64,000 bases of DNA from Paraconexibacter antarcticus (lineage in GTDB: Bacteria > Actinomycetota > Thermoleophilia > Solirubrobacterales > Solirubrobacteraceae), in assembly GCF_024220175.1 (NCBI RefSeq), contig NZ_CP098502.1, forward strand, positions 620,001-684,000. Direction: 5' to 3'. Below the pieces are notes generated by a model. That model did not search any database. It was not told where the DNA came from and saw nothing but the letters and a program-made list of their open reading frames with translations. How positions within the stretch are numbered: the first letter of the stretch is position 1; the number at the start of each line of letters is the position of its first letter. This document shows, in pieces, positions 36,930-54,045 of the stretch. Position numbers and translations under genes: made by a program.

Positions 36930-37520
36930 ATGGCCCGCGTCTACGAGGAGCTCTCCGACGCCCAGCGCGAGTGGATCGCCGCGCAGGCGGTCTTCTTCGT
37001 GGGGACCGCGCCCCTCGCCGCCGACGGGCACCTGAACCTCTCGCCGAAGGGGCCGATCGGGTCGCTCGCCGTGCTCGGCCCGCGCGAGGTCGCCTACCTC
37101 GACGTCGTCGGTAGCGGCGCCGAGACGATCGCGCACCTGCGGGAGAACGGCCGCATCGTCCTCATGCTCTGCGCGTTCAGCGGACCGCCGCGGATCCTGC
37201 GCCTGCACGGGACGGGGACGGTGGCGCTCCCGGGCGAGGCGGCGTACGACGAGCTGCTGGCCCGGGGGGCGTTCGCCGACCCCTCGCGCCCGGAGGCCCG
37301 TCGCGCGATCGTCCACGTCGCGGTGCAGCGGATCGCCGACGCGTGCGGCTACGGCGTCCCGCTCATGGACCACGTCGGCGAGCGCGAGCACGCCGTGAAG
37401 TGGGCGGACAAGAAGCTCGCCGTCGGCGGGACCGGGGCGCTCGACGAGTACATCGAGGAGAAGAACCTGCGCTCGATCGACGGGTTGCCCGCGCTCGACG
37501 CGCCGCCCCCGCGCCCCTGA
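36930..37520 (+). CDS. Pyridoxamine 5'-phosphate oxidase-like flavin/F420-binding protein
   Basis: 196 residues. Split beta-barrel pattern with FFVGTAPLAADGHLNLSPKG and HLRENGRIVLMLCAF typical of the PNPOx-like superfamily (COG3576-type). Probably binds FMN or F420 and reduces or detoxifies a small molecule; true vitamin B6 synthesis is unlikely for this subgroup. Ends at the palindromic repeat copy A. Confidence 0.8.
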   Translation: MARVYEELSDAQREWIAAQAVFFVGTAPLAADGHLNLSPKGPIGSLAVLGPREVAYLDVVGSGAETIAHLRENGRIVLMLCAFSGPPRILRLHGTGTVALPGEAAYDELLARGAFADPSRPEARRAIVHVAVQRIADACGYGVPLMDHVGEREHAVKWADKKLAVGGTGALDEYIEEKNLRSIDGLPALDAPPPRP

Positions 37521-37524
37521 CGCG

Positions 37525-37571
37525 CCGAAACCCGTTCTTGGTCCCCCAGTTGGGCTGTTATCGGGTCTCGG
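37525..37571. repeat. 47-bp palindromic repeat, copy A
   Basis: Begins CCGAAACCCG and ends CGGGTCTCGG, with GTCCCCCAGTTGGGC in the middle. It fills the gap between the convergent PNPOx-like and TetR genes, five bases from one stop and four from the other. Same family as 49215-49261 and 52269-52315. Can fold into a hairpin, so it may also terminate transcription. Confidence 0.85.
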
Positions 37572-37575
37572 CGGG

Positions 37576-38196
37576 TCAGGGGGCTGCGCTGCGCAGCATC
37601 CGCTCGAGCTCGGCGCGCATCGCCGGCCACGGGCTGCGGGCGGGCGGCTGCTCGCGCGGCTCGAACGCCTCGGTCAGCGCGAGCCCGCGCATCGCGGTGA
37701 GGACGAGGTTCAGGCGCGACTCCCAGCCGGGCACCGCGATGAGGTCGCCGCCGATGTCCGCCGCGTGGGCGAGCACCTGCCGGCGCATCTCCTTCTCCAC
37801 GGGCAGCAGGCGACGGTGCAGGTCCTCGTCGTCGGCGGCCGCGATCCAGAGCTTCACGAAGATCGTGAACATCGGGCTCGAGAAGTGCTCCCACAGCAGG
37901 TCCAGGAGCGCGCCGCTGCGGGTCTCCGGGTCGGTCGGCAGCTCACGAGCGTGGGCGGCGATCTCCGCGATCTGCTGGTCGGCGAGCCGCTCGATCGCCG
38001 CGCCGACGAGGTCGACCCGATACGGGAAGTGGTGCGTCTGCGCGCCCTGGGAGACGCCCGCGAGCTCGGTCACGCGGCGGGTCGTCGTCGCCGCGTAGCC
38101 GACGTCGAGGACGCTCTGGATCGTCGCGTCGAGGAGCCGTCCGCGCGTCTCGGCGGTGCGTTCCTCCTGGGTGCGGCGGGCGGGCGGGGCGGTCAC
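37576..38196 (-). CDS. TetR-family transcriptional regulator
   Basis: 206 residues. N-terminal helix-turn-helix (RLLDATIQSVLDVGYAATTT, then ELAGVSQGAQTHHFPYR) and an all-helical ligand domain. GTG 38196. Divergently transcribed from an aldo/keto reductase gene with 57 bases between starts, so it likely controls that gene and itself. Confidence 0.9.
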   Translation of the reverse strand: MTAPPARRTQEERTAETRGRLLDATIQSVLDVGYAATTTRRVTELAGVSQGAQTHHFPYRVDLVGAAIERLADQQIAEIAAHARELPTDPETRSGALLDLLWEHFSSPMFTIFVKLWIAAADDEDLHRRLLPVEKEMRRQVLAHAADIGGDLIAVPGWESRLNLVLTAMRGLALTEAFEPREQPPARSPWPAMRAELERMLRSAAP

Positions 38197-48524: not shown

Positions 48525-49208
48525 GTGCCGATCCCTTACGACCGCGACGCCTCGCTCGTCAGCCACCACCCGTCGCTGCTCACCCCGCCTCGGGCGAGCG
48601 GTGACGACGACGCGCCGACCGCGGCCGCCGTCGAGGCCGGCCAGCGTGCGCGCATCCTCGAGGCGATGGTGCAGACCGTCGCCGCGCAGGGCTACCCGCG
48701 CACGACGGTCGCCGACGTCGTGCGCGCGGCGGGTGTCTCGCGGTCGACGTTCTACGCGCTGCTCGCCGGCAAGGAGGAGTGCTTCCTCGAGGCCTACCGC
48801 CTGGGGACAGAGGTGCTCGAGGACCACATCGACACGGCGATGGACCTCGCGACCGACGGCTGGCGCGGCCGCCTGCAGGACGGCATCCGCGCGTACCTCC
48901 GCGTCCTCGAGGACGACCGCATCTTCGCGCGGACGTTCCTCGTCGAGATCCATCAGGGGTCACCCGCGACGGCGCTCGCGCGGGACGCGGTGCTCGACCG
49001 CTTCGCAGCGCGCTTCCTCGCCTCGCACGCCGCCGCCGTCCGCGCCGGCGAGGGGGAGGGGACGCCGGCGCTCGAGGTCTTCGCGATCCTCGCCCACGGC
49101 ATCGACGCGCTCGTCGCCCGGGCGCTGCGGACGGGCGAGCCCGAGGCGCTCCCGGCGCTCGAACCCGTCATCCTCGACGCGGCCCTCCGCGTCCTGCGCG
49201 GCGCCTGA
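48525..49208 (+). CDS. TetR-family transcriptional regulator
   Basis: 227 residues. Helix-turn-helix QGYPRTTVADVVRAAGVSRSTFYALLAGKEE near residues 55-85, helical effector domain after it. GTG 48525; the first ~40 residues are non-conserved. Lies just downstream of the ACAD pair on the same strand and likely regulates it. Followed by palindromic repeat copy B. Confidence 0.9.
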   Translation: MPIPYDRDASLVSHHPSLLTPPRASGDDDAPTAAAVEAGQRARILEAMVQTVAAQGYPRTTVADVVRAAGVSRSTFYALLAGKEECFLEAYRLGTEVLEDHIDTAMDLATDGWRGRLQDGIRAYLRVLEDDRIFARTFLVEIHQGSPATALARDAVLDRFAARFLASHAAAVRAGEGEGTPALEVFAILAHGIDALVARALRTGEPEALPALEPVILDAALRVLRGA

Positions 49209-49214
49209 CCGCGG

Positions 49215-49261
49215 CCGAAACCCGTTTTTCGTCCCCCAGTCGGGCGCTTGTCGGGTCTCGG
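49215..49261. repeat. 47-bp palindromic repeat, copy B
   Basis: Starts CCGAAACCCG and ends CGGGTCTCGG, with CGTCCCCCAGTCGGGC in the middle; differs from copy C mainly in the bases before the right arm. It fills the gap between the convergent TetR and hydrolase genes, six and four bases from their stops. Confidence 0.85.
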
Positions 49262-49265
49262 CGGC

Positions 49266-50129
49266 TCAGAGGAAGCGCTGCAGGAAGGCGACCTGCGACG
49301 CCGCGACCTGCGCGGGCAGCTCGCCCTGGAACGGGGCGAAGTGGTCCCCCGGGAAGTCGTGCAGCTCCGCGTCCGGCGCCGTCGCGGCGAGCCGCCCGAT
49401 CGCGCCGAAGTCGGCGGAGACGTCGTCCGCGCAGCGGCCGACCCACAGCGGGACCCGGATCCTCGCCGCCTTCGTCACCGGCCGGAAGAGCCCGATGGTC
49501 GCGAACAGGCCGGGCGAGATCTCGTTGCGCCACCGCGATCCGGGGTGCCGGGAGGCCGCGAAGCCGGCTGCCTCGCCGGGGAGGGTCATCGCCGCCCGGC
49601 CGCCCGGCTCCGCGGTGACCGGGATGAGGTTGTGGCGTCCCGCGAGGTCGGCGAGCGCGCGCGGCAGGATCCACGCGACGACCGACGGCGGGGTGACGAG
49701 GACGCGCCGCAGCCCGTCGACGAAGGGGCAGACGAGGAACGCGCCCGCGACGTCCGCGCCGTCGACGAGGAGCTTCGCGACGTGTCCGCCCGAGAACGAG
49801 AAGCCCCACAGGAGGATGCGCCGCGGGTCGACCTCGGGCCGCGCGCGGGCGTACGCGATCGCGCTGCGCCAGTCCTCCCGCTGGCGGGGCGCGCGGAAGC
49901 GTTGCCGGGGCTCGCCGCCGGAGTCCCCGAGATGGCGGAAGTCGAAGACGAGGACGTGCGCCCCGGCGGCCGCGAGCGCCTCGGCGTAGAACGCGAGGCC
50001 GTCGCCGCGGGTCATCGAGAAGCCGTGCGCCATGACGACGCACGGGGCGGGGCCGTCCGCGGCGGCGGGGTAGAACCAGGCGGCGCACTGCGCGTCGCCC
50101 GACGGGAACTCGACGTCCTCGCGGGTCAC
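49266..50129 (-). CDS. Alpha/beta hydrolase (dienelactone hydrolase/peptidase S9-like)
   Basis: 287 residues from GTG 50129. Oxyanion region VVMAHGFSMTRG, nucleophile GFSFSGGH, and C-terminal DHFAPF with the His. No signal peptide. Similar to uncharacterised X-Pro dipeptidyl-peptidase-like hydrolases of Actinobacteria. Divergent from another hydrolase gene. Confidence 0.8.
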   Translation of the reverse strand: MTREDVEFPSGDAQCAAWFYPAAADGPAPCVVMAHGFSMTRGDGLAFYAEALAAAGAHVLVFDFRHLGDSGGEPRQRFRAPRQREDWRSAIAYARARPEVDPRRILLWGFSFSGGHVAKLLVDGADVAGAFLVCPFVDGLRRVLVTPPSVVAWILPRALADLAGRHNLIPVTAEPGGRAAMTLPGEAAGFAASRHPGSRWRNEISPGLFATIGLFRPVTKAARIRVPLWVGRCADDVSADFGAIGRLAATAPDAELHDFPGDHFAPFQGELPAQVAASQVAFLQRFL

Positions 50130-50217: not shown

Positions 50218-50973
50218 ATGCCCGTCACCCGTCACGCCTACGGCCCCGAGCGCGACCAGTTCGCCGAGCTCCACCTCCCCGAGACCGCGCCCGGCGCGCC
50301 GCTCCCCGTCGCGGTCGTCGTCCACGGCGGCTTCTGGACGACCGAGAACGGCGGGGTGGACCGGATGACCGGCCTCTGCGAGGACCTCGTCGCGCGCGGC
50401 TGGGCGGCCTGGAACGTCGAGTACCGGCGGCTCGGCGGCGGCAGCGGGGGCGGCTGGCCGCAGACCGCCCAGGACGTGTCGGCGGCGATCGACCACCTCG
50501 TGACCCTCGAAGACGCGCCGCTCGACCTCGCCCGCGTCGTGAGCATCGGGCACTCCGCGGGCGGCCACCTGACCCTCCTCGACGCCGCCCGGGCGAGCGC
50601 CGCCGTCCGCGTCGCCGCGACCGTCGGCCAGGCGCCGCTGACGGACGTGCAGTTCGCGCACGATCTCGGCGGGCCGGCGACGCAGGTCGTCGAGGCGTTC
50701 ATGGGCGGCGCGCCCGGCGCGGTCGGCGACACCTACGCGCAGGCCTCGCCCGTGCGGCTCGTCCCGCTCGGCGTCCCGATCCTCCTCGTCCAGGGAGAGC
50801 TCGACGACCTCGTCCCGCCCCGGATGGTCGCGGCGTTCGCCGACGCCGCGCGCGCCGCGGGGGACGACGTGACGCTCGAGCTGCGCCCGCACGACGGGCA
50901 CTTCGACCACCTCGATCCGCTGCGCGGCGCCTGGGCGACGACGGCCGACTGGCTTCAGGCGCGCCTGGGCTGA
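50218..50973 (+). CDS. Alpha/beta hydrolase (BD-FAE/kynurenine formamidase-like)
   Basis: 251 residues. HGGFW motif for the oxyanion hole, nucleophile GHSAGGH, acid in LDDLVPP and His in DGHFDHL. The HGG(F/A)W + GHSAGG combination is typical of arylformamidases and BD-FAE esterases. Its 3' end overlaps the 3' end of pabAB by 19 bases (convergent). Confidence 0.85.
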   Translation: MPVTRHAYGPERDQFAELHLPETAPGAPLPVAVVVHGGFWTTENGGVDRMTGLCEDLVARGWAAWNVEYRRLGGGSGGGWPQTAQDVSAAIDHLVTLEDAPLDLARVVSIGHSAGGHLTLLDAARASAAVRVAATVGQAPLTDVQFAHDLGGPATQVVEAFMGGAPGAVGDTYAQASPVRLVPLGVPILLVQGELDDLVPPRMVAAFADAARAAGDDVTLELRPHDGHFDHLDPLRGAWATTADWLQARLG

Positions 50974-53219
50974 GCGGGGCCGGAGGCGGGGGCAGCGGCG
51001 GGGGCCGGGGCGCCGAGGTCATGCGCGCCCGCGTCCCCCCGGGCGCAGAGCGCGACGGCCTCGACGACGGCGCGCGCCTTCAGCAGCAGCTCCTCGACCT
51101 CGCCCGCGGGGTCGGACTGCAGGACGATCGCCCCGCCCGCGCCGATCCGTACCTCGCCCGCGGTGCAGACCGCGGTGCGGATCGTCACCGCGAGGTCGGC
51201 GGCGCCGTTCAGCGCGAGGTAGCCGACGGCGCCGGCGTAAGGCCCGCGCGGGCGGTCCTCGAGCGCGTCGAGCAGCTCCATCGTCCGCTCCTTCGGCGCG
51301 CCCGTCATCGACCCGGGCGGGAACGCGGCGCGCACCGCGTCGGTCGCGTCGAGGCCGGGCGCGAGCGTCCCCCGCACCGACGAGACGAGCTGGTGCACCG
51401 TCGCGTACGGCTCGACGACCATGAGCTCGGGGACGTGGACGGAGCCGACGGCGCAGACGGCGCCGAGATCGTGCCGCGCGAGGTCGACGATCATGAGGTG
51501 CTCGGCGCGGTCCTTCGCCGAGGCGGCGAGCGCGGCGCGCGCACGCGCGTCCTCCGCGGGGTCGGCGCCGCGCGGCGCGGTGCCCTTGATCGGCCGCGAC
51601 TCGACGGCGCCCGCCCGGTCCACCGAGAGGAACCGCTCGGGCGAGGAGCTGACGAGCGTCACGCCCCCGATGCGGACGAACGACGCGTGCGGGGCGGGGC
51701 TGCGGCGGCGCAGGACGCGGTGGAGCGTCAGGGGGTCCAGGCCCGTCGTGATGCGCAGCTCGTCGGTGAGGCAGAGCTCGTAGGACTCGCCGCGGCGGAT
51801 CGCGGCCTGGCAGTCGGCGATGCGGGCCGCGTACTCGGCGCGGCTGCGGGTGGCGCGCACGTGCAGGGGCGGCGCCAGCGGGTCCGGCGCGGGCAGGACG
51901 GGGTCGGGCGCGGCGCCCCGGGGGAGCTTCGCGAGGACGGCCGCCGTCGCGTCGAACCACGCGCTCGCGGCCGCGCCGTCCCCCGCCGCGGTGAGGCAGA
52001 CGAGGTGCAGCTCGCCGCTCTCGTGGTCGAAGGCGAGCAGGCGGTCGGCGAGGATGAGGGCGGCGTCGGGCAGGTCGCTGCGGTGGACGGCCGGCCGGTC
52101 GGGCCCGCCCGCGCCGCCGCCGCCGCCGGTGAGCTCGTAGCCGAGCCAGCCGACGTACCCGCCGGTGAGGCCGAAGGGCGCGGCGGGCGCGTCGCAGCGC
52201 AGCGCCCGCAGCCGCTCGGAGAGGTGCAGGAGGAGGTCGCCGTGGTACTCGATGACCCCCTCCTCGAGCCGAGACCCGTTTTCGGCCCGACTGGGGGACG
52301 GAAAACGGGTTTCGGCGGGGGAGGGGTGCTCGCGCTCGCGCGTGACGCCCGCCGCCGCGTCGTGCGTGAGGACGCGGGCGAGCGGCCCGCGCGCGTCCCC
52401 CATGAACGAGAAGCGCGCGACCGTCGCGCCGGCGAGGCTCGAGTCGAGCCAGAAGCAGTCGGGGGCGTCGGCGTACAGCGCGAGGAACGCGGTCTCGGGC
52501 TCGGGCGGGTGGGGCAGCCGGCGCAGGTGGACCTCGAGCGCCGGCGGGCCGGCCGGCTCGCGGTGGGGCGGCGCCGGGCGGCCCTGCTGGGGCGGCAGCC
52601 GCGCGCCGCGGGCGCGGCGCCCGTCGACCGGTCGCGCGGAGGCGTGCGCGCGCGTGAGGTCGCGGAAGTTCTCCAGCAGCCGCAGCCCGTGCTCCGAGGC
52701 GACCGACTCGGGGTGGAACTGCACGCCATGCCGCGGCCGCGCAGGGTCGGCGAGGCCCATGACGACGCCGTCCTCCGTCCACGCGGTGCGGCGCAGCGAC
52801 GGCGGCACCCGGCGCACCGCGAGCGAGTGGTAGCGGACGGCCCCGAAGCCCTGCGGCAGCCCCGCGAAGACGCCCGTCCCGTCGTGGAAGACGCGGCTGA
52901 CGCGGCCGTGGACGGGCTCGTCGGCCTCCGCGACGAGGCCGCCGGCGACCTCCGCGAGGCCCTGATGGCCGAGGCACACGCCGAGCACGGGGACGTCCGC
53001 GTGCTCGAGCGCCGCCCGGCAGATGCCGAAGTCCCGCCGCTGCCCGGGGTGCCCCGGCCCGGGTGAGAGGACGATGTTGTCGAAGGCCCAGCGCTCGACC
53101 TCCTCCCACGCCCGCGCGTCGTTGCGCACGACGATCGGCTCGACGCCGTTGACCTCCGCCAGCCCGTGGAAGAGGTTGAACGTGTAGGAATCGTGGTTGT
53201 CGATGAGCAGCGTGAGCAT
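50955..53219 (-). CDS. pabAB: Aminodeoxychorismate synthase, fused PabA-PabB
   Basis: 754 residues. The N-terminal glutamine amidotransferase has NHDSYTFN, the catalytic Cys (C82 in GVCLGHQ) and VQFHPES; the C-terminal chorismate-binding domain has RPIKGTAPRG with the PabB-type nucleophilic Lys and GSMTGAPKERTMELLD. Converts chorismate and glutamine to 4-amino-4-deoxychorismate for folate. Residues ~302-317 are encoded by an in-frame palindromic repeat (copy C). Divergent from the pabC-like gene, whose proposed start overlaps this start. Confidence 0.93.
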   Translation of the reverse strand: MLTLLIDNHDSYTFNLFHGLAEVNGVEPIVVRNDARAWEEVERWAFDNIVLSPGPGHPGQRRDFGICRAALEHADVPVLGVCLGHQGLAEVAGGLVAEADEPVHGRVSRVFHDGTGVFAGLPQGFGAVRYHSLAVRRVPPSLRRTAWTEDGVVMGLADPARPRHGVQFHPESVASEHGLRLLENFRDLTRAHASARPVDGRRARGARLPPQQGRPAPPHREPAGPPALEVHLRRLPHPPEPETAFLALYADAPDCFWLDSSLAGATVARFSFMGDARGPLARVLTHDAAAGVTREREHPSPAETRFPSPSRAENGSRLEEGVIEYHGDLLLHLSERLRALRCDAPAAPFGLTGGYVGWLGYELTGGGGGAGGPDRPAVHRSDLPDAALILADRLLAFDHESGELHLVCLTAAGDGAAASAWFDATAAVLAKLPRGAAPDPVLPAPDPLAPPLHVRATRSRAEYAARIADCQAAIRRGESYELCLTDELRITTGLDPLTLHRVLRRRSPAPHASFVRIGGVTLVSSSPERFLSVDRAGAVESRPIKGTAPRGADPAEDARARAALAASAKDRAEHLMIVDLARHDLGAVCAVGSVHVPELMVVEPYATVHQLVSSVRGTLAPGLDATDAVRAAFPPGSMTGAPKERTMELLDALEDRPRGPYAGAVGYLALNGAADLAVTIRTAVCTAGEVRIGAGGAIVLQSDPAGEVEELLLKARAVVEAVALCARGDAGAHDLGAPAPAAAPASGPAQPRRA
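52269..52315. repeat. 47-bp palindromic repeat, copy C, inside pabAB
   Basis: On the minus strand it reads CCGAAACCCGTTTTCCGTCC, continues through CCCAGTCGGGCCGAAAACGG and ends with the CGGGTCTCGG arm, matching copies A and B. It is translated in the pabAB frame as roughly A-E-T-R-F-P-S-P-S-R-A-E-N-G-S-R without a stop, in a variable stretch of the PabB N-terminal region. Confidence 0.88.
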
Positions 53220-54045
53220 CAGCGGGTCGGGGGAGGACGGGCCGCTGGCCTGGAGCCCCCGCACGGGACGATGGCAGACCCCCGCCCCCGCGCCCGGCGA
53301 GCCGCGCTACGCCGCCGTCGACTCCTGGCTCGTCGAGGACGGCCGCGTGCGCGGCCTCGCGCGCCATCACGCCCGCTTCGCCGCGGCGGTCGCGGCGTCG
53401 GCGGCGCTCCCGACGGGCGCGGCGTTCCCGGGCGACGCGGACGTGCAGCGCTTCCTCGCGGCGAGCACCGCGCGGATCCCGGGCGCCGGGCGCTGGTTCC
53501 CCCGCGTCGAGCTCACGACGGACGGCGAGCTGCGCCTGCGCGTCCGCCCGGCGCCCGCGCCGCAGCCCGAGGTCGTCGTCCAGGTCGCCCCGCTCTTCGA
53601 CCGCCGCCGGCTGCCGCGCATCAAGGGGCCCGACCTCGACCGTCAGCTCGCCTGGCGCGCGCAGGCCGAGGCGGCCGAGGCGGGCGAGGCGCTGCTGACC
53701 GGGCCGGACGGCAACGTGACCGAGGGGATCTGGACGACGCCGGTGTGGTGGGACGGCGACGTCCTCTGCGCGCTGCCGCGCGACGCGCCGGTGCTCGACT
53801 CGGTGACGCGCGCGCTGCTCCTCGGGCTCGCGCGCGAGCACGGCGTGGAGGTCGGGCGGGACACGCCGTCGGTCGCCCGCCTGCGCGACTGCGAGACGTG
53901 GCTGCTCAGCGCGCTGCACGGCCTGCGCCTCGTCACCGGCTGGCTGCTCGTCCCCGGCCGCGAGCCCGAGCCGGCGCCCTTCGTGCCGGGCCGCGCGGAG
54001 ACGTGGCGCGCGCGGCTGGAGGCGCTCGCGACCCCTACGCGGTGA
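53203..54045 (+). CDS. pabC: Class IV aminotransferase, probable aminodeoxychorismate lyase
   Basis: About 280 residues. The actinobacterial PabC-like pattern AAVDSWLVEDGRVRGL...HHARF, PLP lysine in RIKGPDLD, and the cofactor loop NVTEGIWTTP are present. It would split aminodeoxychorismate into pyruvate and 4-aminobenzoate, which matches its pairing with pabAB. The start is uncertain: ATG 53203 or GTG 53212 overlap the pabAB start on the other strand, and neither has a ribosome-binding site. Confidence 0.8.
   Translation: MSSVSISGSGEDGPLAWSPRTGRWQTPAPAPGEPRYAAVDSWLVEDGRVRGLARHHARFAAAVAASAALPTGAAFPGDADVQRFLAASTARIPGAGRWFPRVELTTDGELRLRVRPAPAPQPEVVVQVAPLFDRRRLPRIKGPDLDRQLAWRAQAEAAEAGEALLTGPDGNVTEGIWTTPVWWDGDVLCALPRDAPVLDSVTRALLLGLAREHGVEVGRDTPSVARLRDCETWLLSALHGLRLVTGWLLVPGREPEPAPFVPGRAETWRARLEALATPTR

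What the first reader, a model, noticed from the sequence alone, without database searches (positions are those of the whole stretch)
52269..52315. Palindromic repeat inserted in frame within the pabAB coding sequence
A 47-bp palindromic element that is intergenic elsewhere (37525, 49215) lies inside the PabAB gene, is read without stops and adds about 16 residues in a variable part of the PabB half. This resembles the Rickettsia palindromic elements that create new peptide segments in proteins, but in an actinobacterial folate enzyme.
Basis: partly seen in the sequence, partly recalled or inferred. Interest (0 to 1): 0.75.

Follow-up and report, generated by a model that had tools for sequence, protein, structure and literature searches.

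The report
Repeat insert inside a folate enzyme
A short palindromic repeat, present about 25 times in this actinobacterial genome, has landed in frame inside the gene for a folate-making enzyme and adds 20 amino acids at the tip of a surface hairpin; this is a clear new case of a known phenomenon (translated palindromic repeats, as in Rickettsia), in a bacterial group where I found no earlier report.

Summary
A 47-bp palindrome at 52269-52315 lies in frame inside an intact pabAB gene (50955-53219, minus strand). The same element sits between convergent genes at 37525 and 49215, and 25 copies exist in the 5.14-Mb genome: 21 intergenic (14 between convergent genes), 3 inside genes (pabAB, a cobU-cobC fusion linker, the cbiB C-terminus) and 1 read through after ygjP.

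The insert is 20 residues, not 16: 84 residues lie between two conserved anchors, against at most 68 (mode 64) in 78 orthologues, including the closest one (71% identical, same genus). Conserved flanks show that the element is about 72 bp, not 47. AlphaFold2 places the insert as a low-confidence loop at a beta-hairpin tip.

Reading frames differ between genes, so no particular peptide is favoured. Two congeners carry their own palindromic families: one shares the core loop, with compensated arm changes; the other has two copies in the same cobU-cobC linker. No RAYT-type transposase was found in this genome.

Best reading: a REP-like, probably mobile palindromic family whose rare in-frame insertions survive at permissive protein surfaces. 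It works like Rickettsia palindromic elements and intragenic REPs, but is not a member of those sequence families.

The parts
52269..52315 (-). 47-bp palindromic core of the repeat, in frame in pabAB; encodes (A)ETRFPSPSRAENGSR
52256..52327 (-). approximate full element (about 72 bp) including conserved C-rich left and G-rich right flanks; net insertion versus orthologues 60 nt
   Evidence: flank conservation over 23 copies; 84 vs 64 residues between anchors; boundaries inferred
50955..53219 (-). pabAB, bifunctional aminodeoxychorismate synthase (754 aa; GATase + Anth_synt_I_N + Chorismate_bind), intact
   Evidence: Pfam, NCBIfam pabB, closest solved structure 8hx6 ADC synthase
37525..37571 (+). 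sister copy between convergent genes 36930-37520 (+) and 37576-38196 (-)
49215..49261 (+). sister copy between convergent genes 48525-49208 (+) and 49266-50129 (-)

Best explanation
The segment is one copy of a REP-like, non-autonomous palindromic repeat (about 72 bp with a 47-bp imperfect hairpin core) that has spread to about 25 sites in this genome. It mostly settles just past stop codons between convergent genes. One copy inserted into pabAB after this lineage split from its sampled congener. Because the GC-rich element is open in most reading frames and the net insertion is a multiple of three (60 nt), the gene stayed open and gained 20 residues at the tip of a beta-hairpin in the N-terminal PabB domain, where they are tolerated. 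Shown: the repeat family, the in-frame insertion, its absence in orthologues, and its predicted loop position. Inferred: that it moved by transposition (mobiliser unknown), and that the insert is translated and roughly neutral for enzyme activity.
For: 25 copies, mostly intergenic. 14 of 21 intergenic copies lie between convergent genes, against about 21% of intergenic bases in the window (binomial p about 7e-6); only 3-4 of 25 are in genes although 86% of the window is coding. Orthologues lack 20 residues at this point: 84 against 42-68, mode 64, n = 78, including the 71%-identical same-genus gene. Both domains and signature motifs are intact. AlphaFold2 (mean pLDDT 88) shows strands 292-297 and 315-319 either side of a loop with pLDDT about 53. 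Other in-gene copies lie in permissive places: the CobU-CobC inter-domain linker (residues 176-191 between Pfam domains 4-173 and 221-526) and the C-terminal tail of CbiB. The reading frames and strands differ between genes. Matching precedent for REP placement and intragenic REPs: PMC3733652.
Against: No mobilising enzyme was identified: Y1_Tnp is absent from this genome and present only in one congener, G006. No target-site duplication could be recognised. No expression or protein data exist here. Gene calls in this GC-rich genome come from a simple codon-usage caller of mine.
Confidence: 0.85

Rival explanations
1. The element is primarily a functional bidirectional terminator or mRNA 3'-end hairpin spread by duplication and kept by selection between convergent genes; the pabAB copy is a stray.
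For: Strong preference for convergent gene ends, usually directly next to the stop codon; stable hairpin; paired columns kept with compensated changes between two congeners' families.
Against: No U-tract follows the hairpin in nearly all copies (sequence). It lies inside three genes. The unpaired core loop is more conserved than a terminator needs. Sites at convergent ends may simply be where insertions are harmless. No Rfam match.
Confidence: 0.3
2. The inserted residues have been co-opted and have a positive function in the enzyme (for example regulation or partner binding).
For: The copy is intact in what appears to be the only pabAB-type gene of the genome (the second match is TrpE-like in coverage).
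Against: No orthologue has it; loop of low predicted confidence; different genes use different frames, hence unrelated peptides; near-consensus DNA suggests a young insertion.
Confidence: 0.05
3. An ordinary variable loop that happens to be palindromic in GC-rich DNA, not a repeat insertion.
For: Such chance palindromes do occur: the G003 CobU-CobC linker is palindromic but has no second copy in its genome.
Against: The pabAB segment aligns with the other copies over its whole length with hardly a gap; no such match is expected by chance.
Confidence: 0.01

Closest known systems
Rickettsia palindromic elements (RPE)
   Same: Short palindromic repeats found both between genes and in frame inside conserved protein genes at tolerated positions (PMC2229807).
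   Different: RPEs are given as 105-146 bp in Rickettsia; this element is about 72 bp, GC-rich, in Solirubrobacterales, with no tested sequence relation; here few copies (3-4 of 25) are in genes.
GTAG- and CGTC-tagged REPs, including intragenic REPs (Di Nocera 2013, PMC3733652)
   Same: Small stem-loop repeats, mostly less than 20 bp past stop codons of convergent or unidirectional genes; some inside genes encoding 20-30 residues; different REPs found at about the same site of recB in two Xanthomonas species, like the cobU-cobC linker here.
   Different: No unpaired terminal GTAG or CGTC tag; longer core (47 bp); no RAYT in the genome; actinobacteria are not mentioned in that survey.
MITE-type small repeats (ERIC, NEMIS) fused in frame to genes
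   Same: Non-autonomous small mobile repeats that can be translated in frame (PMC2229807).
   Different: No recognised target-site duplication or parent transposon; smaller.

Membership tests
Translated palindromic repeat insertion (functional class) | Repeat family with intergenic and in-frame genic copies | tested here: met
   25 copies; pabAB, cobU-cobC and cbiB in frame
Translated palindromic repeat insertion (functional class) | Orthologous proteins lack the residues | tested here: met
   pabAB: 84 vs at most 68 residues in 78 orthologues. For cobU-cobC and cbiB the site is variable in length, so weaker
Translated palindromic repeat insertion (functional class) | Insert is translated in the living cell | not testable with these tools
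   no proteome or transcript data
Rickettsia palindromic element (sequence family) | Sequence and length (105-146 bp) of RPE, in Rickettsia | tested here: not met
   about 72 bp, GC-rich, Solirubrobacterales-like relatives; RPE sequences themselves not compared
GTAG/CGTC REP | Unpaired GTAG or CGTC at one end of the stem-loop | tested here: not met
   no conserved tetranucleotide at either end beyond G/C at -1/+1; flanks are C-rich and G-rich
GTAG REP with RAYT | Y1 (IS200/IS605-like) transposase in the genome | tested here: not met
   PF01797 absent in own genome, with working controls; present in one congener, G006
MITE | Terminal inverted repeats and target-site duplication | tested here: inconclusive
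   palindromic ends present (CCCC...GGGG); no duplication seen against the G007 empty site, but 71% protein identity is too distant
Intrinsic terminator | GC-rich hairpin followed by a U-run | tested here: not met
   no T-run after nearly all copies; U-less termination in actinobacteria cannot be excluded

The most novel reading that the evidence does not exclude
Solirubrobacterales carry a fast-diverging class of palindromic mobile repeats without a RAYT, in which each species has its own arms around a conserved core loop (GTCCMCCAGTYGGGC in two congeners). These species-specific families invade the same permissive protein positions independently, as in the cobU-cobC linker of two congeners. 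This would imply an unknown mobilising enzyme that recognises the core and hairpin shape rather than the arm sequence.
Probability: 0.3. Interest if true: 0.55.

Novelty: new member of a known kind. Interest (0 to 1): 0.4.

Why it matters
It extends translated palindromic repeats to an actinobacterial lineage and to a well-studied enzyme with a solved close homologue (8hx6), so the cost or benefit of such an insert can be tested directly. Congeneric families with a shared core and compensated arms also give a handle on how RAYT-less palindromic repeats spread, which the 2013 REP survey left open.

Tried and rejected
A core-only search in 100 family genomes gave mostly chance coding matches; only G002 had real palindromic relatives. 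The idea that every congener has a palindromic family in the cobU-cobC linker was rejected for G003: its linker palindrome has no second copy. RAYT mobilisation was rejected for this genome. Rfam gave no match. The first covariance model was mis-registered by one base and was not used. Shared insertion sites between this genome and the G007 copies examined: only the cobU-cobC locus. The ygjP read-through (residues 230-245) was not counted as a firm genic copy, because its ORF continues antisense over a convergent gene.

Full report
What is there. The minus-strand ORF 50955-53219 (754 aa from the ATG) is a fused PabA-PabB aminodeoxychorismate synthase: Pfam GATase 4-185, Anth_synt_I_N 240-406, Chorismate_bind 460-714, NCBIfam pabB above its cut-off. 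The closest solved relative is the Streptomyces venezuelae ADC synthase 8hx6. Between 52269 and 52315 it contains CCGAAACCCGTTTTCCGTCCCCCAGTCGGGCCGAAAACGGGTCTCGG (reading strand), an imperfect hairpin with z = -4.8 against shuffles. Similar copies at 37525 and 49215 lie between the stop codons of convergent genes.

A repeat family. A covariance model built from four copies finds 25 distinct places in the 5.14-Mb single-contig genome at E below 0.01. An independent core-motif scan of the same genome found 15 matches, 14 of them already in that list, so the count is probably near complete for close copies. My codon-usage gene calls around each copy give 14 copies between convergent genes, 6 between unidirectional genes, 1 between divergent genes, 3 in genes, and 1 (ygjP) read through after the domain. 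Convergent spacers make up about 21% of intergenic bases in the window, so the bias is strong (p about 7e-6). Position-by-position counts show that conservation extends to a C-box at -12 to -8 and a G-box at +8 to +13, so the element is about 72 bp.

The insertion. Between the anchors RFSFMG and LGYEL this protein has 84 residues. In 78 orthologues with the region aligned the number is 42-68, with a mode of 64; the same-genus orthologue (71% identical; locus L031, with the same residues as L249 from Solirubrobacterales bacterium RYN_252) has 64. The net insertion is therefore 20 codons. AlphaFold2 with 36 sequences (mean pLDDT 88.3, pTM 0.89) shows strand 292-297, a low-confidence stretch (block 301-310 mean pLDDT 53), then strands 315-319 and 322-326: the insert is the tip of a beta-hairpin. 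The gene is otherwise intact and codon use is normal on both sides of the repeat.

Other genic copies. L005 encodes a CobU-CobC fusion (Pfam CobU 4-173, Aminotran_1_2 221-526); the repeat is residues 176-191, in the inter-domain linker. L021 encodes CbiB; the repeat forms residues about 317-333, beyond the Pfam domain (end 289), in a tail that varies among orthologues. L014 (YgjP) reads through a copy after its domain (orthologues end at 220-234), but its extension runs antisense over a convergent gene, so it is doubtful. pabAB reads one strand of the element (AETRFPSPSRAENGSR); the other genes read the opposite strand, in more than one frame (GRNPISARLGDEKRVSA, PRPDKSPIGGQRTGLG). No particular peptide is therefore selected; what matters is that the element lacks stops in most frames.

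Relatives. G002 (same genus) has palindromic repeats of the same 49-bp length with the core GTCCACCAGTCGGGC and different arms, often in tandem at 59-60 bp. Aligned without gaps to 21 copies from this genome, 92% of cells pair, 6 pairs change on both sides, and cells changed on both sides number 25 against 10 in shuffles (0 of 500 reach it). Sliding the partner by one column drops pairing to 45-51%. Most of these changes separate the two families once, so they count as few events. G007 has its own family (consensus near GCGACGTCGATCCTGCGCCCCCCAGAGGGCACACGAACGACGTCGC, more than 20 copies, often at 72-77 bp spacing), and two copies sit in frame in its CobU-CobC linker. This is either independent invasion of the same permissive linker or turnover of an ancestral copy. 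The G003 linker is palindromic too, but that sequence is not repeated in its genome. No RAYT-type transposase was found in this genome, G002 or G007.

Comparison with the literature. Palindromic repeats translated in frame are established for Rickettsia RPEs (reviewed in PMC2229807) and for GTAG/CGTC REPs in many, mainly proteobacterial, species. In that survey convergent REPs are mostly less than 20 bp from the stop codons, more than half of the intragenic inserts are dimers or groups that encode 20-30 residues, and two Xanthomonas species carry different REPs at about the same site of recB (PMC3733652). My searches of the held library found no report for Solirubrobacterales; that library is incomplete. 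The finding is therefore a new family and a well-documented new instance, not a new kind.

Limits. Translation and enzymatic effect are not shown. The mobiliser and exact ends of the element are unknown. The species name was not available. Gene calls are heuristic.

Noticed in passing
L095 1467-1519 and 1539-1591 (congener G007): Two tandem copies of a different, G007-specific palindromic repeat family lie in frame in the CobU-CobC linker, the same linker that holds a copy of the window's family in this genome.
   Followed up: yes
L088 1162/1222, L089 1586/1645, L090 1463/1523 (congener G002): Tandem 49-bp palindromes (period 59-60 bp) with the same core loop as the window's repeat but other, compensated arms.
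   Followed up: partly
L206 1421-1616, L199 1514-1704 (G007): Clusters of three palindromic units at 72-77 bp spacing in apparently intergenic DNA, resembling REP clusters.
   Followed up: no
L014 1136-2236 (minus): YgjP metallopeptidase ORF seems to have lost its usual stop and reads through a repeat copy into the antisense of a convergent gene.
   Followed up: partly
window 53212-54045 (+): By eye an aminotransferase class IV (pabC-like) gene, divergent from and overlapping the start of pabAB; not tested with profiles.
   Followed up: no
window 50955-50973: The 3' ends of pabAB and the convergent hydrolase-like ORF 50218-50973 overlap by 19 bp.
   Followed up: no
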